A stretch of 36,765 nt of DNA, from contig JAIDOW010000005.1 in the NCBI GenBank assembly GCA_029063085.1, positions 13,606 through 50,370 on the forward strand, written 5' to 3'. The translations under genes were made by a program, and so were the position numbers. The stretch is from Lachnospiraceae bacterium (GTDB lineage: Bacteria; Bacillota; Clostridia; Lachnospirales; Lachnospiraceae). The notes under the pieces are model-generated. The model ran no database searches, was not told where the DNA came from, and worked only from the letters and a program-made list of their open reading frames with translations. Shown here one piece after another: positions 10,433-29,203 of this stretch (position 1 is the first letter of the stretch; every line of letters begins with the position of its first letter).

Positions 10433-10740
10433 GTAAAAAAAGCCTTACGTCTCCTGTCTAGAGACGTAAGACTGACACTTACGCGGTACCACTCTAATTC
10501 ATACATTGCTGTATGCACTTATTGCAGATACGGATTCTTAAGAATCTTATATCCTCCCTGTCATAACGGCTGGGCTCCGTCCTCACCTACTTATCTGATC
10601 AGATATGTTCAGCGGGCTACTCAAAGGCGAGTTCAAATCTCTTTCGTAACTGCTTCACACCTGCCAGCAGCTCTCTGAATACTCCGGAAATCCTACTATT
10701 CCTTATCACAGTATTTAAAAATGATTATATAATTGCTGTA
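10433..10740 (-). ncRNA. T-box leader (tRNA-Leu sensing) controlling leuA
   Basis: On the minus strand the T-box motif AGAGTGGTACCGCG lies at 10482-10495. Stem I contains the distal-loop type motif GAGAGCTGCTGGCAGG and the specifier region GAACTCGCC, with CTC (leucine) at 10629-10631. An intrinsic terminator follows: CTTACGTCTC pairs with GAGACGTAAG (10444-10453 and 10461-10470), then a run of Ts. Uncharged tRNA-Leu should stabilise the antiterminator and turn leuA on. The specifier position follows the usual T-box layout and was not checked by alignment. Confidence 0.94.
10444..10470 (-). terminator. T-box intrinsic terminator
   Basis: The minus strand reads CTTACGTCTC, a seven-base loop, GAGACGTAAG, then GC and seven Ts. 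The left arm lies just downstream of the T-box motif, so terminator and antiterminator can compete. Confidence 0.9.
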
Positions 10741-13233: not shown

Positions 13234-13776
13234 ATGACAGCAGACGAGATGGAACGGCTAATAACATTATATGGGCAATCAATATATAGTTTTTGTTGTC
13301 ATTTGACAGGAAGCAGGCAGACTGCTGATGATCTTTATCAGGATACTCTTTTGAAAGCTGTTGAGTTATGCCACAAACTTAATGGCGGTGGCAAAGCAGA
13401 AGAATTGAAAGCGGTCAGGAATTATCTAATCGGAATTGCAGTCAGGTTATGGAAAAATCAAAGTCGTAAAAATTATTCCCGAAGACTGGATATTTCTTTG
13501 GATGATGAATCAAATGGAAGTGCGTCTACTTTAAGTTCAATGCAGAATGTGGAAGCGGAGATAGAAAATAGGGAGTTAATCTTAAAACTTCGTCAAAGTG
13601 TAAAAAAGCTTCCAGAGAAATTGAGAGTAGTTATTTATATGTATTATACAGTTGGCATGGATATTAAAGAAATAGCAGAAGAATTGCACATTCCACAAGG
13701 GACAGTAAAGAGCCGGATGCATAAAGCAAGGATAAAAATTATGTATGAGTTGGAGGCGGATGGATATGAAATATGA
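13234..13776 (+). CDS. ECF-like sigma-70 family RNA polymerase sigma factor
   Basis: This 180-residue protein has a region 2 helix set (LYGQSIYSFCCHLTGSRQTADDLYQDTLLKAVE) and a region 4 helix-turn-helix (LPEKLRVVIYMYYTVGMDIKEIAEELHIPQGTVKSRMHKARIKI) joined by a short linker, the two-domain layout of extracytoplasmic-function sigma factors. GGAGGT precedes the ATG by six bases. TTGACA at 13194-13199 could be a -35 box, but the -10 candidate (TATTTG) would overlap the ribosome site, so the promoter is uncertain; GTGAAC near 13175 could belong to an autoregulated promoter. The 3' end overlaps the next gene by 11 bases, pointing to a sigma/anti-sigma pair. Confidence 0.93.
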   Translation: MTADEMERLITLYGQSIYSFCCHLTGSRQTADDLYQDTLLKAVELCHKLNGGGKAEELKAVRNYLIGIAVRLWKNQSRKNYSRRLDISLDDESNGSASTLSSMQNVEAEIENRELILKLRQSVKKLPEKLRVVIYMYYTVGMDIKEIAEELHIPQGTVKSRMHKARIKIMYELEADGYEI

Positions 13777-14719
13777 TTATGAAGAGTGGATGAAAAAGGC
13801 ATTTTATGCGGACGCAGAGCCTGATAAAGAAATTAATAAGATGATTTTAGGACAGTGTAAGGAGGAATGCTATATGGGATTTTTAAGGAGAAATAAAAAG
13901 GCAATTGCAATTGCGACATGTTGTTTGGTTTTAGCAGGAGGAACAACTGTGGATGCGGCAACAGGAGGAGAAATTCACAAAGCAGTTGGACGTTTTTTCT
14001 CATCTGTGGTGTATGATACCTCAAGCGATGAAGCAATACAAAAATATCAGGATGTGAATGGTAATTATGTGATTGGTGCAGGGAGTATAGATGAAGAGCT
14101 GGCAGGTGATGAATTATCTCAGTCTGATTCCGTTATGGAATCGGTTGAGCAATTACAGGATTCGGCAGATGGTATAGAATCAGAGGGCTGGCGAATTATT
14201 ACAAGTGAAGATAAAGAAATGGCAATATTAAAGTTTGTAATAAATAATCGAAATTATTATAGTATTACGACAGCGTTTGAAAAATGGATGGATGAGGAAG
14301 ATCGGATATGGGAGTTGAGAAGCAATTTATACAATTTTTTGTATAACGATAAAGAACTGATAAAAGAAAAGCAGTCCTATATTGATAAACTTCTGGAACT
14401 GGAAAATAAGATAGATAAAGAATATGTAAAAGAAGCGGTTGCTCTTGCCATATCGGATATTCAGTCAGGAAAACAGTTGATTTTTGACCAATTTCCGTTG
14501 TCAGCAAAGGAGATGAATCTGGAATCAGAAGATCCTGATGAGATTGTAGATGCAGCATGGACGTTGATTGATCTTGACGAGATTGATTTGATAAACGATA
14601 GGGGAGAAATTATAAAAGAAAGTTCACAGGGGGTGAAAAAGACAATTAAATTTGTTGTAGAGAAAGATAGCGATATAGAGGGGAAATATGTTGTACGGTC
14701 TGCTGAACTGGTCAAGTAA
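13766..14719 (+). CDS. Membrane protein, probable anti-sigma partner
   Basis: I place the start at ATG 13766, where GGAGGC lies eight bases upstream; a longer reading from 13745 lacks such a site. The 317 residues comprise a cytosolic N-terminal stretch of ~45 residues (MKYDYEEWMKKAF...), one membrane segment (AIAIATCCLVLAGGTTVDAA) and a ~250-residue acidic external domain. This topology and the 11-base overlap with the sigma gene fit an anti-sigma factor that holds the sigma until an external signal is sensed. No zinc-binding HxxxCxxC motif is seen and the external domain is not recognised, so the role comes from context. Confidence 0.7.
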   Translation: MKYDYEEWMKKAFYADAEPDKEINKMILGQCKEECYMGFLRRNKKAIAIATCCLVLAGGTTVDAATGGEIHKAVGRFFSSVVYDTSSDEAIQKYQDVNGNYVIGAGSIDEELAGDELSQSDSVMESVEQLQDSADGIESEGWRIITSEDKEMAILKFVINNRNYYSITTAFEKWMDEEDRIWELRSNLYNFLYNDKELIKEKQSYIDKLLELENKIDKEYVKEAVALAISDIQSGKQLIFDQFPLSAKEMNLESEDPDEIVDAAWTLIDLDEIDLINDRGEIIKESSQGVKKTIKFVVEKDSDIEGKYVVRSAELVK

Positions 14720-15915: not shown

Positions 15916-15954
15916 GTTTTAAGAAAAAAGTAAGAATTACAGCAGGATTTATTA

Positions 15955-15963
15955 TGATATAAT
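15955..15963 (+). promoter_or_regulatory. Extended -10 promoter of the MoxR/ABC/vWA operon
   Basis: TGATATAAT is an extended -10 element (TATAAT at 15958-15963). No good -35 box is visible, as is usual for extended -10 promoters. Transcription would begin near 15970. Confidence 0.55.
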
Positions 15964-15965
15964 GA

Positions 15966-16060
15966 AGAAAAATCACTTGCTCGCAAGGGTGATTTTTCTG
16001 AATGCTGATCATGAGCAGTGCTCATGATATAACCATCGAAGCAGAGTGCTATATCAGAAA
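15966..16060 (+). other. Leader with three inverted repeats, two mutually exclusive
   Basis: Hairpin A is AGAAAAATCACTTGC/GCAAGGGTGATTTTTCT (about 15966-15999). Hairpin B is ATCATGAGC/GCTCATGAT (16008-16016 and 16020-16028). Hairpin C is TGATATA/TATATCA (16025-16031 and 16050-16056). B and C share bases 16025-16028, so only one can form, and C ends just before the ribosome site AAAGGAGAGG. This suggests a switch on expression. No known riboswitch class matches. Confidence 0.5.
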
Positions 16061-16072
16061 AAGGAGAGGGAT

Positions 16073-18655
16073 ATGAAAAGGATAAGTAATAAAAGAATTC
16101 TGGCAATCATGACAATATTTGTGTTGCTGCAAGGGATTTTCTTTCCTGCATTTTTTGCAGAAGCAAAGGATACCAAAGAAAAAGGAACGAAGGAAAATGC
16201 GGATTTTAAAGTAGAAATGGAATATGGAATTGACGGATTTGCCGTTTATGATAATCCGGCAGTAGTGAAAGTAAAGGTAGAGAGCAGAAATAACTTTACA
16301 GGAACCCTGCGGGTAATACCAGTGGTAGATAGCGGGCAGAAAATAGCAGCTTACGGGGAAGAGATTTCTCTGGCAGCGGGAGAAGCAAAGACTTTTACAT
16401 TTATCCCGTCTTCTCTGGGAAACTCAGGAAAGATAAAGATTGAATTGCTGGATGAGAAGGAAAACCTTCTTTATTCTGAATCCAAGCAGCTTACGCTATC
16501 CAGTGTGGGAAATAGTGTTACGGTGGGGATCTTAAGTGATGATTATAGTGCTCTGAATTATTTTGACGGAATTGCAATAAATATAGCAGGTAATCAGGGA
16601 TTGCCGGCGGTACGGACATTGGAACTGACAAAGGATTCCATGCCGGCAGACAGTGGGGCATTGTCGGTATTAAATTATATCATTCTTGACAACTTTGATA
16701 CTGCAAGCCTTTCTGACGGGCAGTATATGGCATTAAAGGAATGGGTGAATAATGGAGGAGTGCTGGTTCTTGCATTAGGAAGTAATTATCAGAATGTATT
16801 GCATTGCTTCACGGATGATTTTATCACGGGAACATTAGGAAAGGTTGAAAAGAAGAATATTGGATGGGAATTTTCGGAATTGGAGGATTTCGGTGGGGCT
16901 GAAGGAGGGAATGCAGGAAAGAAAGACGATACTGCAAACGGAGAAAAAGACCAGTCAGAAGAAAATCCCGCAGGAGGAGAAAATGATCAGTCCGAGAGTG
17001 ATACTACAGAAGGAGAAAATGACCAGCCGGAAGGAGATGATAAAACAGCTGAGCAGCAGACGGACAGCGGAATCTCCGTTTCTAATGTAGAATGCGTAGA
17101 ATTTGCATTTACAGATGCTACAGAGATGTCTGGTTTTTCTGATGATAAAACAGCATACCAGAAGCGTATCGGAGCAGGCAGGGTTGTTGTATTATCTTAT
17201 GCTCTTGGCATGGAGCCGGTGACCAGTTGTTCTGTAAACAGAGATTTGGCAAAACTGCTGCTAGAGACATCGGCAGTAGAGGCGATAACAGCACGTTTAA
17301 ATGGAAGCGGAAATATGTCGGGAATGTGGTATAGCGGCATTAATCTGGCTAAGGCGGCAGACGAGAGTAAAAAACCAAGTGCTCTTTTATATGGCTGTAT
17401 TTTGCTGATTTATGTTATTTTCGTGGGACCTTTATTGTACCTGATATTAAAGGCGGTTAAGAGAAGGGAAAAAATATGGATTGCAGTTCCGGTTACGGCA
17501 TTTGTGTTTACTGGTATCATTTATCTGACAGGATTTATTTACCGGATCAGGATACCGCTTGTAAATACATTTTCCCTGATATCACTGGAAGATGAATATC
17601 AGGAAGAGGAAATATATACCAATGTTACATGTCCGAGAGCACAGAAATATAAGATTAAGATTAAGGAAGGGTATACAGCATTCCAATATAATTTTTTGGA
17701 TTACACCTATAGCCTGTTTGGAGTGGAAGATTCTCATAAACAATTTGATTATATGATCAATAAAACGGGCGGCGGGACAGAACTGACTCTGAATAATAGT
17801 GAAACATTTCAAGATACGGCATTTGCTGTGAAAAAAAACAGCGGGAATGACATTGGGACGATTGATTGTGATTTAAAATGTTATACAACAGGATTTGAAG
17901 GAACCATAACTAATAACACAAAATATGACCTGTCAGGAGTTGTGGTGACTTTTGAAAAGTATTTTTACCAGGCCGGTGATATAAAAAGGGGAGAGCAGAT
18001 AACGATCGATACCTCAAAACTGATAGAATCGATGGGATATGGTACTTTTGAGCAGATTTATAATGGCGTGAATCGTTTTAACAGTTCAGACCGTAAGCTT
18101 TATAGACAGTATCAGATTGATACAAGTATGGAATCCGGTTTTGTCAACACACAGGAATATAACAAGGGATATGTATGGGCGTCTGTTGAAGGTTATAAGC
18201 CAGATTTTATAGAAGAAGCCGAGGTAAAACAGTCAGGAATCAGTGTACTGTTTGAGACATATGAGGCAGAATATGAGGATGTAAAAGGTGTGTATTATTC
18301 CAGTCTGGATCCAATGATAGTGTCCAGTCAGGGAGAGTATGATACGCAAGACGGGATGATGTACAATGAAGCGGTAACAATTACGTATTCTTTTGAAAAC
18401 AGTCCGGGGATTACAGCTTTAGAAAATCTGTACTTTGGAGCGGAAGGGACAGTTAATGGTGGAAGTTATGCAAGAGTGTCGGCATACAACCCGGAAACAG
18501 GAGATTATGATTTGATCTTTGAAGATGGCAAAGTTTTGTCGGGAGAAGACTTAAAGAAATATATGTCAGGAAATATCATAGTACTACGTTATGATACGGT
18601 AAATACCGGGTACAGTGCTTATATACCTAGGATTATTGCAAGGGGGGATGAATAA
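16073..18655 (+). CDS. Large exported membrane protein at the head of the ABC/MoxR operon
   Basis: The start is ATG 16073 after AAAGGAGAGG. The ~860-residue protein begins with a signal peptide (ILAIMTIFVLLQGIFFPAFFAEA). Residues ~35-150 look like a beta-sandwich, and ~155-245 resemble a class I glutamine-amidotransferase-like or DUF4350-type segment (VGILSDDYSALNYFDGI, LKEWVNNGGVLVLALGS). An acidic, repetitive stretch with three GE(K/N)DQ units follows. Two membrane segments lie at about 440-500, and a ~360-residue, apparently extracytoplasmic, tail closes it. Its stop overlaps the ABC ATPase start by one base (TAATG). The arrangement resembles GldG-like proteins next to GldA/GldF-type transporters, but sequence identity to GldG is not claimed. 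Confidence 0.75.
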   Translation: MKRISNKRILAIMTIFVLLQGIFFPAFFAEAKDTKEKGTKENADFKVEMEYGIDGFAVYDNPAVVKVKVESRNNFTGTLRVIPVVDSGQKIAAYGEEISLAAGEAKTFTFIPSSLGNSGKIKIELLDEKENLLYSESKQLTLSSVGNSVTVGILSDDYSALNYFDGIAINIAGNQGLPAVRTLELTKDSMPADSGALSVLNYIILDNFDTASLSDGQYMALKEWVNNGGVLVLALGSNYQNVLHCFTDDFITGTLGKVEKKNIGWEFSELEDFGGAEGGNAGKKDDTANGEKDQSEENPAGGENDQSESDTTEGENDQPEGDDKTAEQQTDSGISVSNVECVEFAFTDATEMSGFSDDKTAYQKRIGAGRVVVLSYALGMEPVTSCSVNRDLAKLLLETSAVEAITARLNGSGNMSGMWYSGINLAKAADESKKPSALLYGCILLIYVIFVGPLLYLILKAVKRREKIWIAVPVTAFVFTGIIYLTGFIYRIRIPLVNTFSLISLEDEYQEEEIYTNVTCPRAQKYKIKIKEGYTAFQYNFLDYTYSLFGVEDSHKQFDYMINKTGGGTELTLNNSETFQDTAFAVKKNSGNDIGTIDCDLKCYTTGFEGTITNNTKYDLSGVVVTFEKYFYQAGDIKRGEQITIDTSKLIESMGYGTFEQIYNGVNRFNSSDRKLYRQYQIDTSMESGFVNTQEYNKGYVWASVEGYKPDFIEEAEVKQSGISVLFETYEAEYEDVKGVYYSSLDPMIVSSQGEYDTQDGMMYNEAVTITYSFENSPGITALENLYFGAEGTVNGGSYARVSAYNPETGDYDLIFEDGKVLSGEDLKKYMSGNIIVLRYDTVNTGYSAYIPRIIARGDE

Positions 18656-19605
18656 TGCTGCAAATTCAGGGTCTGACCAAAAAATATGGGAAATTCCTTG
18701 CATTAAATGATTTGAACCTTCACATAGAAAAAGGAGAAATATTTGGGTTTGTGGGTCCCAACGGTGCGGGAAAAACTACGACCATGCGGATTGTATGCGG
18801 TCTTTTAAAGGCAACCGGCGGAGAGGTGCTGGTAGATGGAATCAGTGCCATAAAAAATCCGGAGGATATTAAAAGAAAGGTTGGGTACGTGCCGGATTTC
18901 TTTGGTGTCTATGATAATCTTAAGGTTATGGAATATATGGAGTTTTACGGTTCCATGTATGGAATGAAGAAGGATGATGTGGACGAGATTGCCAAGGGGC
19001 TTTTGGAACTGGTAAATTTATCGGATAAAAAGGAAGAATTTGTAGATACCCTGTCCAGAGGAATGAAGCAGCGTCTTTGTGTGGCAAGGGCACTGATTCA
19101 TAATCCGGACCTGCTGGTTTTGGATGAACCCAATTCCGGTCTGGATCCAAGAGCCAGATTCGAGATGAAGGAGGTTCTAAAGAATCTGGGTTCCATGGGG
19201 AAAACCATTATCATCAGCTCTCATATCCTTCCGGAGCTTGCGGAAATGTGTACCAGTATCGGAATAATGGAACACGGACAGTTGATCATAAACGGGAAAG
19301 TAGAAGAGATTATGCAGAAATCCCAGGGAATCCGACCGATTTGTATGCGTGCATTTACACCGGATTATAATGAGGAAGAGGAGAGCCACCGATATATTTC
19401 CACGGTATTGAAGGAGCAGCCTAATGTGGGGAAGGTAACGTTTACAGAAGAGGAAATAAGGATTTCCTTTACGGGAGACGAGCAGGCTGCGGCACAGCTT
19501 TTAAAGAATCTGCTGGAACGGAATATTTTAGTCAGCAATTTTTACAGGGAAAAAGAAGATCTGGAATCTTTGTTCCTTGAAATAACGGGAGGAAAGCAGG
19601 CATGA
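18655..19605 (+). CDS. ABC transporter ATP-binding protein
   Basis: This 316-residue ATPase has Walker A GPNGAGKT (34-41), a YVPDFFGVYDNL Q-loop region lacking a Gln at the usual position, the signature LSRGMKQR (from 133), Walker B LLVLDEP (153-159) and the switch His in IIISSH. A ~90-residue C-terminal extension follows, as in ABC-2 exporters such as GldA, NatA and YxlF-like proteins. It starts one base inside the preceding stop and overlaps the permease gene by four bases (ATGA), so the three are translationally coupled. It should power export or mechanical work by the permease at 19602. The cargo is unknown. Confidence 0.94.
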   Translation: MLQIQGLTKKYGKFLALNDLNLHIEKGEIFGFVGPNGAGKTTTMRIVCGLLKATGGEVLVDGISAIKNPEDIKRKVGYVPDFFGVYDNLKVMEYMEFYGSMYGMKKDDVDEIAKGLLELVNLSDKKEEFVDTLSRGMKQRLCVARALIHNPDLLVLDEPNSGLDPRARFEMKEVLKNLGSMGKTIIISSHILPELAEMCTSIGIMEHGQLIINGKVEEIMQKSQGIRPICMRAFTPDYNEEEESHRYISTVLKEQPNVGKVTFTEEEIRISFTGDEQAAAQLLKNLLERNILVSNFYREKEDLESLFLEITGGKQA

Positions 19606-20501
19606 AAAATAGAATTCATATGAATCCAATCTTAAAAAAAGAACTGATGGTAGGTTCTAGAAGTATTAAGATGTCCTTTGCCATTATGGGAATTAATGCA
19701 TTCCTGACATTGATAGTAATTCTGGTCATTATATCTACCAATGCAATGGGCGGAGTGATCAGTTATGATTATTCATCCTTAAGTTCCCTGTTTCCCATTC
19801 TAGGATGCACGGAATGCGGACTGATCAGTCTGATTGTCCCGATTATTACATCAGGTTCTATTTCAGGGGAAAGGGAGCGGCAGACATTAGACATTATGTT
19901 AACAACGCCGGTATCTCCGTTGTATATCGCATTTGGAAAGCTTGGTTCTGCCATGATGGTGGTCATGATGTATATGATTACCAGTATACCGGTTATGGCA
20001 ATAGCATTTGTGCTTGGCGGAATGAGCTGGTTTGCCTTATTTGGATTAATTGCAATGCTTTTGTATCTTGGCATATATGTGGGGAGCGTGGGCATATTTT
20101 GTTCCAGTGTGGTTAAAAAATCAGTTATGGCAACTATTCTTACGATTGCCATTGGCGTCGGAATTATCGTGGTCACTTCCGTAATTTTTTATGCCGGACT
20201 GGCCATAAAGGCATATCAGGCAAATCTGCCTGGCAGTGTGGTATCATTTTCTCCGGGGGCAGTCCCCCTTGTGATGATGCTTAATCCGTATTCCCCGATT
20301 TTTGATTTTATGCTTCGGACTATGTCAAGTGCCAGTATATATGATATCATTGAGGAGGCCGGAAATACATCCATTACTCTGGGAAATCTCTATAAATACT
20401 GGATTCCCGTGTCAGTTATATTAAATTTGTTTATATCATTTGGATTTTTAAAGCTGGCAGCCAGAAATATCGCTGTGACAAGAAACCGGAAGGGGAAGTA
20501 A
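19602..20501 (+). CDS. ABC-2 type transporter permease
   Basis: This 299-residue integral membrane protein has about six hydrophobic segments and a cytosolic N terminus (NPILKKELMVGSRSIKMSF) followed by TM1. The loop GSISGERERQTLDIMLTTPVSPLYIAFGKL is the coupling region typical of ABC-2/GldF-like permeases. A longer external loop lies between residues ~205 and 265. Its ATG overlaps the ATPase stop, indicating translational coupling. Together with the ATPase it should form a homodimeric exporter or a GldA-GldF-like complex. Confidence 0.9.
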   Translation: MKNRIHMNPILKKELMVGSRSIKMSFAIMGINAFLTLIVILVIISTNAMGGVISYDYSSLSSLFPILGCTECGLISLIVPIITSGSISGERERQTLDIMLTTPVSPLYIAFGKLGSAMMVVMMYMITSIPVMAIAFVLGGMSWFALFGLIAMLLYLGIYVGSVGIFCSSVVKKSVMATILTIAIGVGIIVVTSVIFYAGLAIKAYQANLPGSVVSFSPGAVPLVMMLNPYSPIFDFMLRTMSSASIYDIIEEAGNTSITLGNLYKYWIPVSVILNLFISFGFLKLAARNIAVTRNRKGK

Positions 20502-20765
20502 ATGAAAAAGTATACTATTATTCAGCATATTGCAGATATTTCAAAGATTAATAACGGTTGGACCAAAGAACTCAATGTAGTGGCATGGGCAAATAGAGAG
20601 CCTGTATATGAGCTGCGTTCATGGAATGTAGATCATACGGAAATGGGAAAAGGGATTACTTTGACACCAAATGAATTAAGAAAATTAAAAGAGGTGTTAA
20701 ATGATATGGATTTGCGATGTATGTCAGCTGATATGTACCATGAGGATGAGAAATCAGGGGAATGA
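20502..20765 (+). CDS. PC4/YdbC-like single-stranded DNA-binding protein
   Basis: This 87-residue protein contains the YdbC/PC4 pattern: HIADISKINNGWTKELNVVAWANREPVYELRSWNVDHTEMGKGITLTPNELRKLKEVL. Members are small dimeric beta-alpha proteins that bind single-stranded DNA or RNA. It begins on the base after the permease stop (TAA then ATG) and its stop overlaps the next possible start (ATGA), so it is embedded in the ABC/MoxR operon. Its presence there is unexpected. It may be a regulator of the operon or a passenger; the sequence does not decide. Confidence 0.85.
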   Translation: MKKYTIIQHIADISKINNGWTKELNVVAWANREPVYELRSWNVDHTEMGKGITLTPNELRKLKEVLNDMDLRCMSADMYHEDEKSGE

Positions 20766-20788
20766 TATGGTTTGAAAGGAGAGTTATT

Positions 20789-22351
20789 TTGGATCACAAA
20801 ATCAGACAATTTGTATACCGTGTACGGGCAAGGCTCCGGGAGCAGAAGATAATTGAAAACATAATAAAGTTTGTGGTAATCGGCCTGCTGGTTGCAGTTA
20901 TTCTTTCTTTTGTTTCCATGATGGTTCCGTTTTATTATGCGGTGCCTGCCACAGCCGGAATAGTTGGAATTTGTTTTGTGGCGGGGATCATAATGGGTAT
21001 TTATAAAACCCCAACCCCAATGGAAGCGGCATTAAAGGCAGATTCCAAAGGTCATAAGGAAAAGATTTCCACTGCATTTTATCTGGAAGGGAAAGAGGAT
21101 TCCTTCAGCACTTTACAGAAGAAGGATGCATTGAAGGTCATGGAGGCTTTTCAAGTCCGCAAAGAATTTCCATTGCAGCTTTCATGGAAACAGATTTTAG
21201 CTGTATTAGGACTTTCCCTGGTGTTTGTGGCATGCAGTATGGTAGAGACTCCGGCAAGGGAAGCGGCAGAAATCAGAAAAGATATAGAAAAAGAAGCGAA
21301 GGAAGAGATTGCCCGTTTGGAAAAGGTGGAGAAGAAATTAGGGCAAAGCAGGGAGATTTCGGAGACAGAAACGGCTGAGATTAAGGAGCAGATTGAAAAT
21401 GCAAAGCGTGAATTATCAGAAGCCGGTTCCAGAGAAGAACTGAAAAAAGCACAGGAACGTATAACTAAAAAAATGGAGATGGCGGCTGAAAAGACCGAAA
21501 ATAAAACATTGAGCGAAACTATGCAAGATGCGGCAAAGGAAGCCGGGGATGCCGCTGGGAAAAAGGAAAGTGATCTGGCAAAGGAAGCCGAAGAAGCACT
21601 TGCGAAGGCCCAAAAAGGAAACCGTAAGGAAAAGCAGGATGCGTATAAGAAGTTAAAAAAATTAGCGGATGCCATGGGTGATGAAGCATTAAAAAAAGCA
21701 GCGGAGGATTACAAAGATTCCAGTTATTCTGACAGTGATTATGCGGGGGCACAGCAGGCATTGAATGAAGCTCTTGAGAACAGAGAGGCAGATCAGACAG
21801 ACTTGGCGGATAATCGGAGTAATACCGGTTCCAAGGACGATCAAGAGAAGTCTTCGGATAACATTAGTCAGGGTAATTCCCAAAATAACGGCGGTAATCA
21901 AAGTGATAAGGGGAATCAGAACAACAGCCAGAATGGTAATGCAAATCATAATCAGAATAATGGTCAAAACAGCGGGTCTGGAAACGGACAGGGAAATGCA
22001 GGACGAAACGGAAGCGGTTCCGGTAATGGCAGTGGTACAGGGAACGGTTCCGGAGGTGGCTGGAATCATGGCGGAAAGGAAGGTCAGGAGGGAGCCAGAA
22101 AGACGAATGAAAATATCACGGTCCCTGATGGGGAAACTGGCGATGACGGGAATTTAACAGGAAAAGCAAACGGAAACGATAGCAGTACAAAAGAAAAATC
22201 CGGTCAGTCCCAGACCTGGTCAGGTAATAAAGTAAGCTATGGGGAAGTTTCAGGAAGATATAAGGAAAAAGCGTATAAGAAGGTAAACGGCTCTAGTTAC
22301 CCGGGAAAGCTGAAAAATAAAATCCGGGATTATTTTGATGGACTGAATTAG
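20789..22351 (+). CDS. Membrane protein with coiled coil and low-complexity tail
   Basis: Two starts are possible. TTG 20789 has AAAGGAGAG six bases upstream, giving MDHKIRQFVYRV; ATG 20762 overlaps the previous stop but has a poorer site. I prefer the TTG. Two membrane segments follow (FVVIGLLVAVILSFVSMMV and YYAVPATAGIVGICFVAGIIMG), then a third near residue 130 (ILAVLGLSLVFVACSMV), about 200 residues of Glu/Lys/Ala-rich coiled coil, a Asn/Gly/Ser/Gln-rich stretch (~350-440) and a short basic end (YPGKLKNKIRDYFDGLN). No enzyme domain is recognised. Placed directly before moxR, it may be a scaffold of the complex. Confidence 0.75.
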   Translation: MDHKIRQFVYRVRARLREQKIIENIIKFVVIGLLVAVILSFVSMMVPFYYAVPATAGIVGICFVAGIIMGIYKTPTPMEAALKADSKGHKEKISTAFYLEGKEDSFSTLQKKDALKVMEAFQVRKEFPLQLSWKQILAVLGLSLVFVACSMVETPAREAAEIRKDIEKEAKEEIARLEKVEKKLGQSREISETETAEIKEQIENAKRELSEAGSREELKKAQERITKKMEMAAEKTENKTLSETMQDAAKEAGDAAGKKESDLAKEAEEALAKAQKGNRKEKQDAYKKLKKLADAMGDEALKKAAEDYKDSSYSDSDYAGAQQALNEALENREADQTDLADNRSNTGSKDDQEKSSDNISQGNSQNNGGNQSDKGNQNNSQNGNANHNQNNGQNSGSGNGQGNAGRNGSGSGNGSGTGNGSGGGWNHGGKEGQEGARKTNENITVPDGETGDDGNLTGKANGNDSSTKEKSGQSQTWSGNKVSYGEVSGRYKEKAYKKVNGSSYPGKLKNKIRDYFDGLN

Positions 22352-22376
22352 GGTTACAGTGATGAAAGGAGAAGAT

Positions 22377-23357
22377 ATGACAGACGAGACAAAGATACAG
22401 AATATGATAGAAAAAATAAAGTCCTGTGAGGAGGAGATTGGAAAAGGAATTATTGGACAGCGGGATATTATCAGACAGGTACTGCTGGCGATTCTTTCTG
22501 ACGGAAATGTGTTGTTAGAGGGTGTGCCGGGGCTTGGCAAGACGGAGCTTGTAAAAGCAATCTCAAAAGTGCTCTCTACCAGTTTTTCCAGAATTCAGTT
22601 TACACCAGATCTGATGCCAGCAGATGTTACCGGAACAAACCTGATCATAAAGGAAGAGGGAAATAATGTATTCCGGTTTGAGCCGGGACCGGTATTTGCC
22701 AATATTGTGTTAGCGGACGAGATTAACCGGGCAACACCCAAGACCCAGTCTGCATTGTTGGAGGCAATGCAGGAAAAGACGGTAACGGTGGGAAAAACGA
22801 CTTATGAGCTGCCCAGTCCCTTCATGGTACTGGCGACACAGAATCCCATTGAGAATGAAGGTACGTATCCGCTGCCGGAGGCACAGCTGGATCGTTTTTT
22901 ATTAAAACTTCTGGTAGAATTTCCCAGTAAGGAAGAACTGAAGGCAATCATGGATATTACTGTGACTAATAAAACTACGGAGCTACAACCTGTCATAAAC
23001 GGAGAGGATATCATAGAAATCAGAACGGCAGTGAGGGATATGCCGATTGCAGATGCTGTAATGGATTATGCTTTGTCCCTTGTTGTGTCTACCCATCCGG
23101 ATAACCGGGAGGCACCAGAGGTTGTAAAGAAGTATATACAAAATGGTGCAAGCCCCCGTGGGGCACAGGCAATCATCAAAACGGCAAAAGCAAGAGCATT
23201 TATGGAGGGAAGATATAATGTTGCCTTTGAAGATATTCGGTTTGTTGCCTGCCCGGCATTAAGGCATCGTCTTGCTCTTAATTTTGAGGCAGTTTCCGAC
23301 GGTGTGACGACAGATGATGTGGTCAGGCAGATAATAGAAGGAATGAAGACTGTGTGA
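22377..23357 (+). CDS. MoxR-family AAA+ ATPase
   Basis: MoxR proteins are AAA+ chaperones thought to insert cofactors into, or remodel, partner proteins containing vWA domains. The 326 residues (start ATG 22377, GGAGAAGAT upstream) show Walker A GVPGLGKT (49-56), Walker B VLADEINRATPK with Asp114/Glu115, sensor ATQNPIENEGTYPLPEAQLDRF, and the C-terminal ASPRGAQAIIKTAKARAF lid. It is followed by a DUF58 gene and a vWA gene, the standard MoxR-DUF58-vWA order. It is near the family's usual ~320 residues and intact. Confidence 0.95.
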   Translation: MTDETKIQNMIEKIKSCEEEIGKGIIGQRDIIRQVLLAILSDGNVLLEGVPGLGKTELVKAISKVLSTSFSRIQFTPDLMPADVTGTNLIIKEEGNNVFRFEPGPVFANIVLADEINRATPKTQSALLEAMQEKTVTVGKTTYELPSPFMVLATQNPIENEGTYPLPEAQLDRFLLKLLVEFPSKEELKAIMDITVTNKTTELQPVINGEDIIEIRTAVRDMPIADAVMDYALSLVVSTHPDNREAPEVVKKYIQNGASPRGAQAIIKTAKARAFMEGRYNVAFEDIRFVACPALRHRLALNFEAVSDGVTTDDVVRQIIEGMKTV

Positions 23358-23428
23358 AGCAGGCGGAAAAGGAATTGACAGTGATTTGATCGTTTTGTGA
23401 TTGGTACAAACTGACGAAGGGGATATGA

Positions 23429-24304
23429 ATGGAATCAGCAATTTTTGATAATGCTTTTTTTAAAAAACTGAATACGCTTAAGATGAGCCTTAATATGCAG
23501 TTAAGCCAGGGAGTGAGCGGTGTACGCAAATCCAGTGCAAAAGGTTCCTCGGTAGAATTTTCTGATTTCAGGGAATATATGCTTGGGGATGATATCCGGC
23601 GGATTGACTGGAATGCTTATGGGCGTACCGATAAGCTTTATATCAAGCAGTTTATGGAAGAAAAGGAAGGTATTTTCAGAATTTTTATAGATACCAGTCG
23701 TTCCATGTGTTTTGGAGAAGCTTCGAAATCCACAATGGCATTGCAGACTGCGGGTGCACTTTCTTATATTATATTAAATAATCTGGATCGTGTCTATATT
23801 AATGAAATGAAGGAAAATTCTTTGGTAAAAGGAAAGGGAGTGACAGGTACGGCGGCCTTTTCCCATATATTAAAGGATTTGGAACGTATTACCTTTGACG
23901 GAAAAACAACACTGAATAGAACGATCTTATCCTGTCCGGTGCAGGCAGGAGGGGTATCTGTCATTATCAGTGATTTCCTTGACAAAGAGGGGATTGAGGA
24001 GGCAATAAAATATCTGGCATATCGGAAACAGACTATCGTTCTGATTCAGATTCTTGCAGAAGAAGAACTGCGGGTGAATTATGAGGGAACGCTCAACATC
24101 CTGGATATGGAAACAGGGGAAAAAGTTAAGATTACTATGTCTAATGCGACAATCAGGGAATATACAAAGCAGCTGGAGAATATGCAGGCAGGATTACAGA
24201 AGCTAGTCCGGAAATATGGTGCATATTATATTTTTATGCAGTCGGATGAAGACTTAGTTTATGAAATGCTGCATGGATTTGCAGGAATATTACAGAAATT
24301 GTAA
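23429..24304 (+). CDS. DUF58-domain protein (vWA-like, MoxR partner)
   Basis: This 291-residue protein contains the DUF58 core EFSDFREYMLGDDIRRIDWNAYGRTDKLYIKQF near residues 45-75, followed by FRIFIDTSRSM, a vWA-type MIDAS DxSxS motif, and VSVIISDFLD. DUF58 proteins are usual neighbours of MoxR. Many members have two N-terminal TM segments; this one lacks them and begins almost at the core, so it is probably cytosolic. It starts 71 bases after moxR, the largest gap in the operon, with GAAGGGG as ribosome site. Confidence 0.93.
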   Translation: MESAIFDNAFFKKLNTLKMSLNMQLSQGVSGVRKSSAKGSSVEFSDFREYMLGDDIRRIDWNAYGRTDKLYIKQFMEEKEGIFRIFIDTSRSMCFGEASKSTMALQTAGALSYIILNNLDRVYINEMKENSLVKGKGVTGTAAFSHILKDLERITFDGKTTLNRTILSCPVQAGGVSVIISDFLDKEGIEEAIKYLAYRKQTIVLIQILAEEELRVNYEGTLNILDMETGEKVKITMSNATIREYTKQLENMQAGLQKLVRKYGAYYIFMQSDEDLVYEMLHGFAGILQKL

Positions 24305-24338
24305 AGGCTGCAATAAAGGAATGCCTAGGAGGATTATT

Positions 24339-24740
24339 ATGGGGAAAGGGACGGCATTTAGAAAAATCGTCGTTTTGGGAAAACAGTATAAGTGGAGATA
24401 CTGCTATGATGACCTGGAATTTGTAAAGTATCCGTTTTCATATTACCTGTTCGTGCCAGATGAAAATAAGAAATTAATGGTTAAAGTGATCTTCAGAGAA
24501 CTGGAACCATCCATGCTGATTGAGAAAGATTATGGAACACAGGCAAAATATGGAGATAGGGAAGTCTGGATAAATTTAAATAGACCCAGATATGCGGCCT
24601 TAGTTATTGCAGAAGTGTTTGAGCGAATGGTGGATATAAAGAATGATTTTGGCACAAAAGAATTAAATGGTGAAAATATTTTGCGGAGTCTGGGATATGA
24701 ATTTCAGAATTTTTCAGATAGGATAGGGAGGAAAGCATGA
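24339..24740 (+). CDS. Unrecognised 133-residue cytosolic protein in MoxR/vWA operon
   Basis: The start is ATG 24339, right after AGGAGG; upstream in-frame starts have poorer sites. The protein (MGKGTAFRKIVVLGKQYKWRYCYDDLEFVKYPF...) has no membrane segment, signal or recognised motif, but mixes beta-like and helical stretches and is rich in Tyr/Lys. Its stop overlaps the start of the 1488-aa vWA gene by four bases (ATGA), so it is translationally coupled to it. Its place between DUF58 and vWA genes suggests an adaptor. Confidence 0.7.
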   Translation: MGKGTAFRKIVVLGKQYKWRYCYDDLEFVKYPFSYYLFVPDENKKLMVKVIFRELEPSMLIEKDYGTQAKYGDREVWINLNRPRYAALVIAEVFERMVDIKNDFGTKELNGENILRSLGYEFQNFSDRIGRKA

Positions 24741-27700
24741 CAGTACAAAATCTATGGCCGCTGGCATTTTTAAGTGTAGTACCGGTTATCATTTTACTAT
24801 ATCTGTTAAAGCAAAAGGTCAAAGACCAGTCTTTTTCCTCCATTATGCTTTGGCAGGAGATTTATAAGAATCTGGAGGCAAAGACCCCTTTTGAGAAATT
24901 AAAACAGAATATCCTTATGTATATGCAGATTCTGCTTATGCTGCTCCTTATTTTTGCCTTGATGGCTCCTACGTTAAAAAAAGGCGGCGTCTTACAGGAG
25001 AATACTGTTATCGTCATTGATAACAGTGCCAGTATGCAGTATTTATATGATGAACATGATACCAGATTAGAACATAGTATCAAGGAGGCGAAAAAGGAAA
25101 TAGACCGATTAAGCGAGAATGCTATGGTTACCCTTATTTCCGCAGGAAAAGATGCAGCAGTTGTTTATCAGGGAAGGGATAAATCCACATTAAAAAAGCG
25201 CCTGAACGGAATAGAAGCAACGATGGAGGCGGGAACTTTTGACGTGGCGGCAGGAGTTGTCAATTCCGTGATTGCAGAGCTTAACCATGTTCAGATCATA
25301 TGTTATACGGATACTTCTTTTAACAGTAATGATTGGATAAAGAACAATAAAAATGCGGCACTTATCGTGGAAAATGTATATTCCAAAGGAGAAAACTGCT
25401 CTTTGGATTATATAAACTATTCCGTGACGGAGGACGGGGTAGAAGTTCTTTGCAGAATCACTAATTATGGTGAGAGGGAGATTACGCAGGATGTCAGTCT
25501 TTATGCAGGTTCGGATATTGCGGATGTTCAGACAGTAACGGTAAAGTCAAAGGAAAGCGAAATCGTATATTTTGAAAAACAGAATGTTGCCGTAGACGGC
25601 AGTGTAGTTCTTCGCGGAGAATTAAGTGAAAAAGACAGCCTGACGGCAGATAACAGTCAGAGTATTGCGGTAACGTCAGACACAGAGAAAAAAGTACTGC
25701 TTTTGTCAGAGGGAAATGTATTTCTGGAAAAAGTACTGGCATTGGATGATAATGTAACCGTGTATAAATCAGATGATGTCAATGTACTAAATCAGGCAGT
25801 AGGTGACAACGGACAAAATGAAACGTTTGACCTCTATGTTTTTGACGGGATAGAACTGCCCGAAGATTTTGATGTCATGCAGTTCCCGGAATCTGCCGGT
25901 TTTTTATTTTTCAATTATGCAAAAGACTTCTATGATTCCGGGTATATAGTAAAAGATTCAGAGGTATCCGATACGGTTTTGTATTTTGATAAAAGCCCGG
26001 TTACCGGATATATCGAGGAATATTCCTTTGGGATTGTGAAAGCCTATACTTATGTACTTCCCGACTGGGGACACCCCTTTTTAAAAACAGGGGAAGGCGG
26101 TATTACCGGTTATTATGGGACGGATGGGAAGCATAATATCGGAGTGATTGGATTTGATATCCACAATACGGATTTTGCGTTGCAGACAGAGTTCCCGATT
26201 TTTATGTCGCAGCTTGGGGATATGCTTTTGGGAACAGGAATAGAAGAAACTGAGATTGCCAATTTTCCTGTTGGTGAGGAATCAGATGTGATACCGGTGG
26301 ACAGCGTCACGGTAAAGGGAAACGGAAATCATAAGAAAACCGGTGGCAGGGCAATCCGTAATCTGTTATTGCTGGCAGTAGTCTTATTATTGGCAGTAGA
26401 GTGGATCATATATATCAGGCAGGTAAACAGTACAAAGAAGAAACAATTTTTGGCAGTCCGTATCCTTGTACTTTGTGCGGTTATCTTAGCAATGGCAGGG
26501 GTATCTGTGTCCAGAAAACAGAAAAAGACGGAAACCATTTTTCTGGTGGATGTATCTGACAGTATGTCAGGCAATCTGGAGAAAGCAGAGCAGTATTTAA
26601 AGGATGTTGTAAAAGAGATGCCGGAAAAGAATCTTCTGGGCATTGTAGCATTTGGAAAGGATACAGCAGTCGATCAGTTTCTTTCTGATAAAAAATCATT
26701 TTCTGGATTTACAGTGAATCCTGTCATGACAGCCACCAATATCGAGAAGGCAGTTACCAATTCCTGCTCTATGTTTGATGAAGGAGTAACGAAACGTCTG
26801 GTACTGATTACGGATGGAAGTGAAAATGAGGGCAGCATGAGTCTGGCGGCAGCGGCATTAAAGGGAAGTGATGTGGAACTTCTTGCACTTACCATGGAGG
26901 ACAGTATCGGAGGAAATCATGAAGTATATGTCAGCGGGGTATCCGTGCCCAATGTGATACATGCCGGTGACCACTACAATGTTACGGTTTCCGTGACTTC
27001 CAATGTGGAAACCGATGCACTGCTTTCCCTGTATGCCGGCAGAAACACCAAGGGGCAACAGAGCATTCATTTAAATAAGGGGGAGAATCAGTTTGTTTTT
27101 GAAGATGTGGGGGAAGAGGGAGATATTGCCCGTTATAAAGCAGTGATCGAGCCGGAAGAGGATACTATCTCAATCAATAACACGTACGTGGCCTTCGCTG
27201 AGATCGAAGCCAGACCAAGGGTGCTGCTGATCGAAGGAATGGCAGGAGAGGGCAGTGAGTTTGAAAAAATTCTGGCTGCTGCTAATATAGAGTATGACAA
27301 GGTTACCCCTAAGGGAGTACCGGTCACTTTGTCGGGGCTTAATCAGTATAAGGCAGTTATCACCTTAAACGTGCATTATGAAGATTTACGGGCAGGTTTT
27401 ACAAAGATACTGGAACCCTATGTAAAGGATTTTGCCGGAGGTTATATCTGTATCGGGGGTGAGAATAGTTTTGCACTGGGAAATTACCGGAATACGGTAT
27501 TGGAAGAAATTCTTCCGGTCAACATGGATTTACAGGGCGAAAAAGAAATACCGAAGATGGCGATGGCAATGGCGATTGACCAGTCCGGAAGTATGACATC
27601 TCCTTCAGAGGAAAATACTTCCGTAACAGGGCTGGATCTGGCAAAGCAGGCGGCACTTTCCGGCGTATCAGAGTTAAGAAGCAGTGATGAGATAGGCATA

Positions 27701-29203
27701 CTGGCATTTGATGATACCTATCATTGGATTGTTCCAGTACAGGAAGCCTCTGATATAGAACAGATTAAGGATGATATCAGTTCTATCGGATATGGTGGCG
27801 GCACCAGCATTTATCCAGCATTACAGCAGGCATATGAACAGATTTTAAAGAGCAGTGCAAAGATCAAGCATATTATACTGCTGACGGACGGTCAGGATGG
27901 ATTTAATCAGTACGATGGGCTTTTAAAACAGATTAATGAGGCGGGTATTACCGTATCCACGGTTGCTGTAGGCAGTGATTCGGATCAGGCAACGCTTCGA
28001 TATATAGCTGAAACATGCGGGGGAAGGTTTTACTATACGGATGTGAATAATTCAATTCCGAGGATTTTTGCCCAGGAAGTTTACCTGTCCACTAAGACAT
28101 ATCTGATCAATGAGGAGTTTTATCCGTCTGTTACAAGCAACCATGAAATACTGGAAGGTGTTATGGATGAAGGGTGTCCGGCACTCCTTGGTTATGTGGC
28201 GGCAACGCTGAAACAGACAGCCGATGTTATTTTGGAGTCAGACAGGGAGGATCCGGTGCTCAGTACATGGCAGTGCGGTCTGGGAAGGACCGTGGCATGG
28301 AACAGTGACGGGAATAACGAATGGACGGCACAGTATGCCGGCTGGGATAATTATCCGATGCTGTGGTCTAATATCATTCACTATGTCATTTCGGATTCGG
28401 AACTGGGGGAGGATAACCTTGAGGTGGTAAAAGAAGGGAACACTGCATCCATTACCTATGAAACAAAGGATTATGATAAGGATACAAAGGTAACGGCAGT
28501 GGTGACGGATGAAAACGGAACTGCAAAAGAAGTGTCTTTGGACGCTGTAAAACCGGGTGTATTTGAGACGGAACTGGATATGGCGGAAATTGGTGTTTAC
28601 AATGTAAGTGTAAGAAAACTGTCAGGGGAAGAGGTCGTAAAAAATTATAATACAGCATATGCAAACCAGTATTCGGCAGAATATCAGTTTGCTGATACGG
28701 ATGCAGATTTTGCATCCTTTGTGAAGCAGGCCGGAGGCAGGGAGATATCTTTTAATGATAATATCTGGAAGGGGAATCCTAATACAGTAAAGGCAAGGAT
28801 ATCCCTTACCGTTCCGCTGCTGGTCTTTGCAATTTTGATGTTTCTGTTTGATATCATAATCAGAAGATTTTCCATAGATTTACTGGTATATGTGAGAAGA
28901 GGAGAAAATGCAGTCAGAACACAGTTGAAGGGATATACAGAAAAAAGAAAGCGTACATTTGTGCAGACTGAACATGTAGGAGATCATGAGGAAGCAGGTC
29001 TTACAACGCAAAAAGAGCAGGTGGCTTTGCAGTCTCAGGATGTAGAATCAGAGGGTAAGCGTGAAAGTAAAAAGATACTGAAAAAAACAGGGGATATGTT
29101 ACAGCAAAAGGAACAAAAACAGGAAGAAAGAGAGCCAGCTCCGGTAGATTCCGATAAGCTTGATATGAACCAATTACTTAAAAAGAAACGGGAGAGAGAG
29201 TAA
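24737..29203 (+). CDS. Giant triple-vWA membrane protein (BatA N-terminal / GATase-like)
   Basis: This 1488-residue protein has a BatA-type N terminus (LWPLAFLSVVPVIILLYLL and a second TM near 58-78), then vWA-1 with MIDAS DNSAS (Asp95). Residues ~220-530 are beta-rich and probably external. Two more TM segments (~540-590) precede vWA-2 with DVSDS (Asp605) and LITDGSEN. Residues ~820-935 match the glutamine-amidotransferase-like domain with IGGENSFALGNY, next to vWA-3 with DQSGS (Asp948), GGTS and LLTDGQD. A last TM lies at ~1358-1376, ahead of a charged cytosolic tail of ~110 residues. It looks like a fusion of two vWA proteins separately encoded elsewhere. MIDAS sites bind metal and partner proteins, so it is the likely MoxR client. 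Confidence 0.88.
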   Translation: MTVQNLWPLAFLSVVPVIILLYLLKQKVKDQSFSSIMLWQEIYKNLEAKTPFEKLKQNILMYMQILLMLLLIFALMAPTLKKGGVLQENTVIVIDNSASMQYLYDEHDTRLEHSIKEAKKEIDRLSENAMVTLISAGKDAAVVYQGRDKSTLKKRLNGIEATMEAGTFDVAAGVVNSVIAELNHVQIICYTDTSFNSNDWIKNNKNAALIVENVYSKGENCSLDYINYSVTEDGVEVLCRITNYGEREITQDVSLYAGSDIADVQTVTVKSKESEIVYFEKQNVAVDGSVVLRGELSEKDSLTADNSQSIAVTSDTEKKVLLLSEGNVFLEKVLALDDNVTVYKSDDVNVLNQAVGDNGQNETFDLYVFDGIELPEDFDVMQFPESAGFLFFNYAKDFYDSGYIVKDSEVSDTVLYFDKSPVTGYIEEYSFGIVKAYTYVLPDWGHPFLKTGEGGITGYYGTDGKHNIGVIGFDIHNTDFALQTEFPIFMSQLGDMLLGTGIEETEIANFPVGEESDVIPVDSVTVKGNGNHKKTGGRAIRNLLLLAVVLLLAVEWIIYIRQVNSTKKKQFLAVRILVLCAVILAMAGVSVSRKQKKTETIFLVDVSDSMSGNLEKAEQYLKDVVKEMPEKNLLGIVAFGKDTAVDQFLSDKKSFSGFTVNPVMTATNIEKAVTNSCSMFDEGVTKRLVLITDGSENEGSMSLAAAALKGSDVELLALTMEDSIGGNHEVYVSGVSVPNVIHAGDHYNVTVSVTSNVETDALLSLYAGRNTKGQQSIHLNKGENQFVFEDVGEEGDIARYKAVIEPEEDTISINNTYVAFAEIEARPRVLLIEGMAGEGSEFEKILAAANIEYDKVTPKGVPVTLSGLNQYKAVITLNVHYEDLRAGFTKILEPYVKDFAGGYICIGGENSFALGNYRNTVLEEILPVNMDLQGEKEIPKMAMAMAIDQSGSMTSPSEENTSVTGLDLAKQAALSGVSELRSSDEIGILAFDDTYHWIVPVQEASDIEQIKDDISSIGYGGGTSIYPALQQAYEQILKSSAKIKHIILLTDGQDGFNQYDGLLKQINEAGITVSTVAVGSDSDQATLRYIAETCGGRFYYTDVNNSIPRIFAQEVYLSTKTYLINEEFYPSVTSNHEILEGVMDEGCPALLGYVAATLKQTADVILESDREDPVLSTWQCGLGRTVAWNSDGNNEWTAQYAGWDNYPMLWSNIIHYVISDSELGEDNLEVVKEGNTASITYETKDYDKDTKVTAVVTDENGTAKEVSLDAVKPGVFETELDMAEIGVYNVSVRKLSGEEVVKNYNTAYANQYSAEYQFADTDADFASFVKQAGGREISFNDNIWKGNPNTVKARISLTVPLLVFAILMFLFDIIIRRFSIDLLVYVRRGENAVRTQLKGYTEKRKRTFVQTEHVGDHEEAGLTTQKEQVALQSQDVESEGKRESKKILKKTGDMLQQKEQKQEEREPAPVDSDKLDMNQLLKKKRERE

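What the first reader, a model, noticed from the sequence alone, without database searches (positions are those of the whole stretch)
16073..29203. Nine-gene operon joining a Gld-like ABC exporter to a MoxR/DUF58/vWA chaperone system
ABC ATPase, permease, large exported partner, MoxR, DUF58 and vWA genes are tightly packed with several overlapping starts and stops, under one predicted promoter. MoxR systems normally act on vWA partners, and GldA/F-type ABC systems act in envelope processes. Their union in a Firmicute, with extra unknown parts, could be an envelope-remodelling or secretion machine whose function is not described to my knowledge.
Basis: partly seen in the sequence, partly recalled or inferred. 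Interest (0 to 1): 0.75.

Follow-up and report, generated by a model that had tools for sequence, protein, structure and literature searches.

The report
Conserved clostridial ABC-MoxR membrane operon
This is a seven-gene operon, kept together in many clostridia, that seems to encode one cell-surface machine driven by two different ATP-burning engines; two further genes in this copy are probably passengers, and no study of it was found.

Summary
Nine packed + strand genes lie at 16073-29203. Seven (GldG-like exported protein, ABC ATPase, ABC-2 permease, coiled-coil/Asn-Gly-rich membrane protein, MoxR, DUF58, BatA-vWA protein) are a conserved unit: all seven in 12 of 15 family loci, 12 of 26 phylum loci and 55 of 80 further loci, in one order except L071, where permease and GldG are fused. 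Orf4 (YdbC/PC4-like) and orf8 (orphan) match nothing in those loci and are probably passengers.

History: the GldG-ABC-permease trio also stands alone behind a two-component system (14 of 14 loci fetched). The MoxR-DUF58-vWA half also occurs without this ABC ATPase and resembles rhizobial RL3499-RL3502 in order. Operon ABC ATPases form one clade (81 tips, support 0.78); six of the seven parts show correlated divergence (r 0.84-0.95).

Best mechanism (inferred): one membrane complex; the ABC transporter works on orf1's GATase/GIFT-fold ectodomain, and MoxR with cytosolic DUF58 assembles or resets the complex through orf9. Likely job: envelope maintenance or surface export; substrate unknown. 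True Gld membership fails by NCBIfam cut-offs.

The parts
16073..18655 (+). orf1, core: GldG/DUF4350-like membrane protein, 860 aa: signal/TM, extracytoplasmic beta-sandwich plus GATase1/ThuA/IFT52-GIFT-fold domain (model residues about 147-403), two TM segments, second extracytoplasmic part
18655..19605 (+). orf2, core: ABC ATPase (DrrA/GldA type) with Walker A, signature, Walker B and H-loop
19602..20501 (+). orf3, core: ABC-2 type permease, six hydrophobic segments
20502..20765 (+). orf4, probable passenger: PC4/YdbC-like small protein; relatives lie elsewhere in other genomes
20762..22351 (+). orf5, core: N-terminal TM segments, coiled coil (by eye), Asn/Gly/Ser/Gln-rich linker, conserved C-terminal motif; no Pfam family
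22362..23357 (+). orf6, core: MoxR AAA+ ATPase
23429..24304 (+). orf7, core: DUF58 protein with vWA-type DxSxS site, no TM segment (so probably cytosolic)
24336..24740 (+). orf8, probable passenger: 134-aa orphan (ORF open from 24261)
24737..29203 (+). orf9, core: 1488 aa; BatA double TM, vWA1, double TM, vWA2, GATase1-like domain interrupted by vWA3, TM, disordered tail ending in a short basic Leu-rich helix. Split into two genes (9N, 9C) in about half of the loci
15936..15963 (+). promoter-like site (ATTACA-16-TATAAT, TG before -10); consensus match only
15966..15999 (+). hairpin with U-rich 3' side between promoter-like site and orf1; possible attenuator

Best explanation
Orfs 1-2-3-5-6-7-9 encode one membrane-spanning, two-ATPase envelope complex. 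Step 1 (inferred): the ABC ATPase (orf2) and permease (orf3) form the membrane engine, coupled to the GldG-like orf1, whose large extracytoplasmic GATase/GIFT-fold and beta-sandwich domains hold or hand over a surface substrate. Step 2 (inferred): orf9, with three metal-site vWA domains and a second GATase1-like domain outside, and orf5, with a long flexible outside arm, form the rest of the surface assembly. Step 3 (inferred from NorQ/NorD): the MoxR ring, with the cytosolic vWA protein DUF58 as adaptor, acts from inside, perhaps through the basic tail of orf9, to assemble, gate or reset the complex. Shown here: conservation as a unit, ATPase and metal-site motifs, predicted topology and folds. 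Not shown: any physical contact, substrate or phenotype. The likely role is envelope maintenance or export/insertion of a surface component. Orf4 and orf8 are not needed.
Against: No physical, expression or phenotype data. The ABC ATPase is not essential to the scheme: L028 and L038-L041 have an orf1-like gene, MoxR, DUF58 and orf9 but no same-strand ABC ATPase hit, with 13 kb or more of upstream DNA in view; the orf1 match is weak in L038, L039 and L041 (E 2e-6 to 2e-5), and the permease place gives at most weak hits. L042, L043 and L045 lack orfs 1-3 and 5 hits altogether. L107 keeps only 7-9 in 8.3 kb. The trio also occurs apart from MoxR: no orf5, 6, 7 or 9 hit in the 14 stand-alone loci. 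In Deinococcus a different, importer-type ABC run lies directly before the MoxR genes, so ABC genes beside MoxR need not mean this coupling. Correlated distances are also expected from plain vertical descent. In the midpoint-rooted ABC tree the stand-alone ones do not form a clade of their own. Motif scans are not perfect: ABC Walker B 61/82, DUF58 core 84/109, vWA1 DxSxS 90/110, strict tail motif 41/112. The orf9C model has pTM 0.59, so domain placement is unsure.
Confidence: 0.5

Rival explanations
1. Stress-export reading: the GldG-ABC trio is a regulated exporter (detoxification or envelope stress) that happens to need MoxR/DUF58 as a maturation chaperone. Orf9 and orf5 are only scaffolds for that maturation.
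For: The stand-alone trio sits behind a response regulator and histidine kinase in 14 of 14 loci fetched (queries taken from one of them, L142), and 5 family operon loci (L007, L008, L009, L011, L020) keep that pair upstream. The best-scoring NCBIfam model of orf2 is DrrA (250 bits, cut-off 312).
Against: The stand-alone trio has no MoxR beside it. Orf1 and orf9 carry large outside domains untypical of simple exporters (recalled). No resistance or export phenotype is known to me.
Confidence: 0.22
2. Two independent modules share one transcript without physical or functional coupling.
For: Each half occurs alone elsewhere: stand-alone trio; MoxR-DUF58-vWA without this trio in Deinococcus, Ketogulonicigenium and (with DUF4159 in place of vWA) Sinorhizobium records.
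Against: Fixed order with orf5 in the middle across many families, a single operon ABC clade, both halves kept when split in G004. Orf1-like genes stay beside MoxR even where the ATPase is missing (L028, L038-L041).
Confidence: 0.18
3. A true gliding or type IX secretion part, as the Gld label suggests.
For: GldA is the second-best NCBIfam model of orf2 (226 bits) and GldF the best of orf3 (43 bits); GIFT-type fold in orf1.
Against: Scores far under cut-off (402.6 and 288.5), no NCBIfam hit for orf1. Flagellin is about equally common with and without the operon (10/16 and 72/134). Other gld/spr genes were not searched for.
Confidence: 0.03
4. A MoxR-vWA biological-conflict (defence) system.
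For: PMC7159879 (search listing only) treats MoxR-vWA in conflict systems; the bpMoxR model matches orf6 at 56 bits, cut-off 27.
Against: No beta-propeller match in the nine proteins; AAA_3 scores far better (211 bits); correlated divergence of parts. The PADLOC library was not searched.
Confidence: 0.05

Closest known systems
RL3499-RL3502 (cmdA-D) operon of Rhizobium leguminosarum and its rhizobial relatives
   Same: Gene order MoxR, DUF58, BatA-headed membrane protein, GATase-region protein in a Sinorhizobium meliloti pSymB stretch that I take as a relative; profile E 1e-103, 8e-13 and 1e-12 for parts 6, 7 and 9C. Published mutants have morphology and envelope defects (title and citing passages only).
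   Different: No ABC or orf5-like gene annotated in the 10 kb before MoxR (that gene table is incomplete). The third protein ends in DUF4159 and shows no vWA match. R. leguminosarum itself was not compared.
Bacteroides aerotolerance (Bat) operon
   Same: MoxR, DUF58, BatA/BatB-type vWA proteins (as described in PMC5700661 passages); orf9C vWA2 matches BatB 3ibs and BatA 4jdu.
   Different: No BatD/TPR/SH3 match in the unit; three vWA domains and a GATase1-like domain in one protein; ABC trio added.
Archaeal arCOG01314 (DUF4350/GldG-like) neighbourhood, Makarova et al. 2015, PMC5898192 (section 3.2 and passages read)
   Same: GldG-like ectodomain protein with MoxR-type ATPase and secreted vWA protein; predicted secretion or membrane-remodelling complex.
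   Different: Section 3.2 names no ABC ATPase, permease or DUF58 among its partners; S-layer and Ig-like proteins are prominent. Its Figure 2 and full Table 2 were not seen.
GldA-GldF-GldG ABC transporter of gliding Bacteroidota
   Same: ABC ATPase, ABC-2 permease and a partner with this kind of fold.
   Different: Under the family cut-offs; no MoxR half there (recalled).
NorQ/NorD (MoxR + vWA) of Paracoccus denitrificans, PMC9976466 (passages)
   Same: MoxR ring with a cytosolic vWA adaptor acting on a membrane protein.
   Different: A two-protein chaperone; its target is nitric oxide reductase.

Membership tests
MoxR-DUF58-vWA module | MoxR AAA+ core with Walker A/B, sensors and Arg finger | tested here: met
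   AAA_3 210.7 bits, cut-off 27; motifs in 88-99 of 103 relatives
MoxR-DUF58-vWA module | Adjacent DUF58 gene | tested here: met
   113 bits, cut-off 23.4; order 6-7 kept in the loci
MoxR-DUF58-vWA module | Membrane vWA protein with intact metal site | tested here: met
   BatA 44 bits, VWA 114 bits; DxSxS 60/60 in vWA2 and vWA3, 90/110 in vWA1
Bat operon | BatD/BatE (TPR, SH3) genes in the unit | tested here: not met
   No such Pfam match among the nine proteins at E 1
RL3499-RL3502 (cmd) operon | Order MoxR-DUF58-BatA protein-GATase protein | tested here: met
   (S. meliloti stretch, not R. leguminosarum itself)
RL3499-RL3502 (cmd) operon | DUF4159 in the third protein | tested here: not met
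   Present in L156; not in orf9
Gliding-motility ABC (GldAFG) | GldA equivalog model | tested here: not met
   225.7 bits, cut-off 402.6
Gliding-motility ABC (GldAFG) | GldF equivalog model | tested here: not met
   42.6 bits, cut-off 288.5
Gliding-motility ABC (GldAFG) | GldG model | tested here: not met
   no NCBIfam match for orf1 at E 0.1
Gliding-motility ABC (GldAFG) | Loss of gliding on mutation | not testable with these tools
   needs mutants
arCOG01314 complex | DUF4350 domain protein beside MoxR and vWA genes | tested here: inconclusive
   DUF4350 in 6 of 13 orf1 relatives, best E 0.018, window copy none
ABC-2 type transporter | ABC ATPase motifs plus ABC-2 permease | tested here: met
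   (Walker B regex 61 of 82 relatives)
bpMoxR ternary conflict system | beta-propeller third component | tested here: not met
   no such Pfam match among the nine proteins

The most novel reading that the evidence does not exclude
A new class of Gram-positive envelope machine in which a MoxR ring and an ABC transporter are two motors of one complex: MoxR/DUF58 loads or resets a GldG-type ABC transporter through the basic tail of a triple-vWA membrane protein, while paired GATase-fold domains outside (orf1 and orf9) handle a surface substrate.
Probability: 0.25. Interest if true: 0.8.

Novelty: new variant of a known kind. Interest (0 to 1): 0.5.

Why it matters
MoxR-vWA modules are common but most of their targets are unknown (recalled; stated in part in the papers). 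Here the module is stably tied to a defined GldG-type ABC transporter, which gives a concrete candidate target and makes the question 'what does MoxR act on?' testable in culturable clostridia. The stand-alone transporter without MoxR gives a natural control. If the coupling is physical, it would link two large, poorly understood systems (MoxR/Bat and GldG-type ABC) in one machine of gut and rumen bacteria.

Tried and rejected
Nine-gene unit: rejected. Orf4 and orf8 single-sequence profiles matched none of 147 fetched loci (L007-L153) except the window's own orf8 copy in L134 (all hits checked, not only those in the printed tables). The same slots hold unrelated genes elsewhere (LD-carboxypeptidase-like, NUDIX, HD, radical-SAM-like and others, named by eye). 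Orf4 relatives occur in 23 other family genomes of 150, away from the operon in three operon genomes (G002, G092, G106). Orf8: itself plus one weak 28% match, G015.

'Missing' genes in L023, L036 and L065 in the first gene-order tables were faults of my ORF picker; counts were redone from all hits. G120 looked like a giant MoxR fusion, but the long frame is withheld sequence read as N. Dropped; G120's orf9 therefore could not be judged.

A C-terminal motif like LDTxxLLKKK, suggested by the first alignment, does not hold across the phylum: my regex hit 38 of 60; a looser form does better. Active glutamine amidotransferase: no column of A5 has Cys in 40 or more of 60 rows. Motility link: none. 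Foldseek alone gave poor matches for orf1; VIA-align, a second look at Foldseek's list, put the GATase1/ThuA/IFT52 group on top. Orf5 matched no family consistently. Pfam found no permease family in the permease place of L028, L038, L039, L044, L046. My first guess that the Deinococcus ABC genes were unrelated bystanders was checked: they are importer-type (NMT1-like binding protein, BPD_transp_1 permease) but packed directly before the MoxR genes. BLASTP with L156 failed because that frame holds stops; its open pieces were scored apart.

Not done: PADLOC or PHROGs scans, sampling of other phyla, complex modelling, conservation of the leader hairpin.

Full report
What is there. The window is G000:C57:13606-50370 of a 3.34 Mb assembly; its nearest named relatives are mostly Lachnospiraceae records. 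Nine + strand genes fill 16073-29203. By Pfam they are an unassigned exported protein, an ABC ATPase, an ABC-2 permease, a PC4-like protein, an unassigned low-complexity membrane protein, MoxR, DUF58, an unassigned 134-159 aa protein and a 1488-aa BatA/vWA/GATase1-like protein.

Which genes belong. Of 18 family genomes of 150 with an orf9 match, three match weakly (short stretches only) and 15, the window's own included, match strongly. I took the 14 others (15 loci, L007-L021). In 13 of the 14 the order 1-2-3-5-6-7-9 is kept as far as contigs allow: 12 loci complete, plus G092 with 9C on another contig; L010 has about 5 kb of other genes between 5 and 6. The fourteenth, G004, has 1-2-3-5-6 at one place (contigs C16 and C13, ends falling in orf5) and 7-9 at another. 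Orf4 and orf8 occur in none. In about half of all loci orf9 is two genes, 9N and 9C: 61 split, 57 fused.

How widespread. The orf9C profile finds 52 of 398 phylum genomes at 1e-30, in 35 of 267 genera. I fetched 26 loci, chosen to spread over families: 12 have all seven genes. Of the other 14, three end too soon (L024, L025, L037) and one is a short fragment hit (L047). The other ten have no ABC ATPase hit on the operon strand and at most weak permease hits (L038, L044, L046, E 7e-6 to 4e-5); L028 and L038-L041 still have an orf1-like gene. L044 and L046 show under 8 kb upstream. Fifty-four of these keep the order; L071 has the permease fused in front of GldG, followed by the ATPase. The sets overlap in part. 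One family genome in ten carries the operon (15 of 150), so it is sporadic but kept whole.

All or none. In 150 family genomes orf5 is found in 17: the 15 operon genomes, G120 (whose continuation is withheld) and one weak low-complexity hit, G100. The orf1 profile is broader: 52 of 150 genomes. Fourteen further orf1 loci that I fetched (L136-L138, L141-L146, L149-L153; one of them in an operon genome, G096) are a stand-alone operon: response regulator, histidine kinase, GldG-like, ABC ATPase, permease. The two-component pair is directly upstream in 14 of 14 (queries from L142), and no orf5, 6, 7 or 9 hit lies in any of them. Five operon loci keep the same pair upstream. In a tree of 100 ABC ATPases the 81 operon ones are one clade (support 0.78) without the 14 stand-alone ones and 5 others; the root is by midpoint, and the stand-alone ones form no clade of their own. 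This fits a single joining (or a single separation). Distances between six parts correlate at 0.84-0.95 over 73 loci, as expected for parts inherited together, though vertical descent alone gives the same.

How it may work. The NorQ/NorD study (passages read) shows a MoxR ring using a cytosolic vWA adaptor on a membrane target. By analogy MoxR with DUF58 would act on orf9 and through it on the ABC-GldG part. The analogy is functional; nothing here shows contact. The order of the MoxR half matches a Sinorhizobium meliloti stretch that I take as a relative of RL3499-RL3502, an operon reported to affect cell morphology and envelope integrity (title and citing passages; the paper itself is not held). 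That is the main ground for an envelope role.

Against. ABC-less versions show that the ATPase is not universal. The stand-alone trio shows that GldG-ABC can do without MoxR. In Deinococcus aetherius an importer-type ABC run (NMT1-like binding protein, BPD_transp_1 permease, ATPase) is packed directly before two unassigned genes, MoxR, DUF58 and a vWA protein: another kind of ABC beside MoxR, so adjacency alone is not proof of this coupling. No expression or phenotype data exist here. Gliding is not supported: family cut-offs are missed and flagellin is about as common with as without the operon (10 of 16, 72 of 134; G120 counted as operon).

Literature. Searches for MoxR with DUF58, vWA, ABC transporter, GldG, Clostridium, BatA, for DUF4350, the RL genes, MoxR subfamily names and GldG with Lachnospiraceae gave no title or abstract describing this operon in the held open-licence papers; few of the listed papers were opened. 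Subscription papers are mostly not held, so this is not proof of absence.

Verdict. A real, conserved seven-gene operon joining two known kinds of module; a new variant, uncharacterised as far as I could find, worth a knock-out. Interest 0.5.

Noticed in passing
L136-L138, L141-L146, L149-L153: A separate operon, response regulator, histidine kinase, GldG-like protein, ABC ATPase, permease, with the two-component pair directly upstream in 14 of 14 loci fetched. Not searched for in print under that name.
   Followed up: partly
window 15966-15999: Hairpin ending in U-rich sequence between the promoter-like site and orf1 (-14.9 kcal/mol): possible attenuator. Conservation not tested.
   Followed up: partly
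window 10457-10718, - strand: T-box leader (Rfam RF00230, 132.6 bits) upstream of a 2-isopropylmalate synthase-like gene (named by eye) at 8659-10338; ordinary.
   Followed up: no
L071:130-3573: ABC-2 permease and GldG-like protein in one 1147-aa ORF.
   Followed up: yes
L010/L072, L052, L055, L057, L060, L097, L027: Unrelated genes or insertions sit between core operon genes in several genomes while the core order is kept.
   Followed up: partly
L132:3256-9718: In Deinococcus aetherius an importer-type ABC run is packed directly before two unassigned genes, MoxR and DUF58.
   Followed up: partly
L045: Two divergent MoxR-DUF58 clusters lie back to back.
   Followed up: no
L028, L038-L041: Operon versions with an orf1-like gene and the MoxR half but no same-strand ABC ATPase hit; a 222-298 aa protein of no Pfam family sits in the permease place in L028, L038 and L039.
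   Followed up: partly
L140, L154 (G120:C13): Sequence from within MoxR onward is withheld (reads N); looked at first like a giant fusion.
   Followed up: no
window 13234-14719: ECF sigma factor gene followed by an overlapping gene for a protein with one hydrophobic segment (by eye), perhaps a sigma/anti-sigma pair.
   Followed up: no
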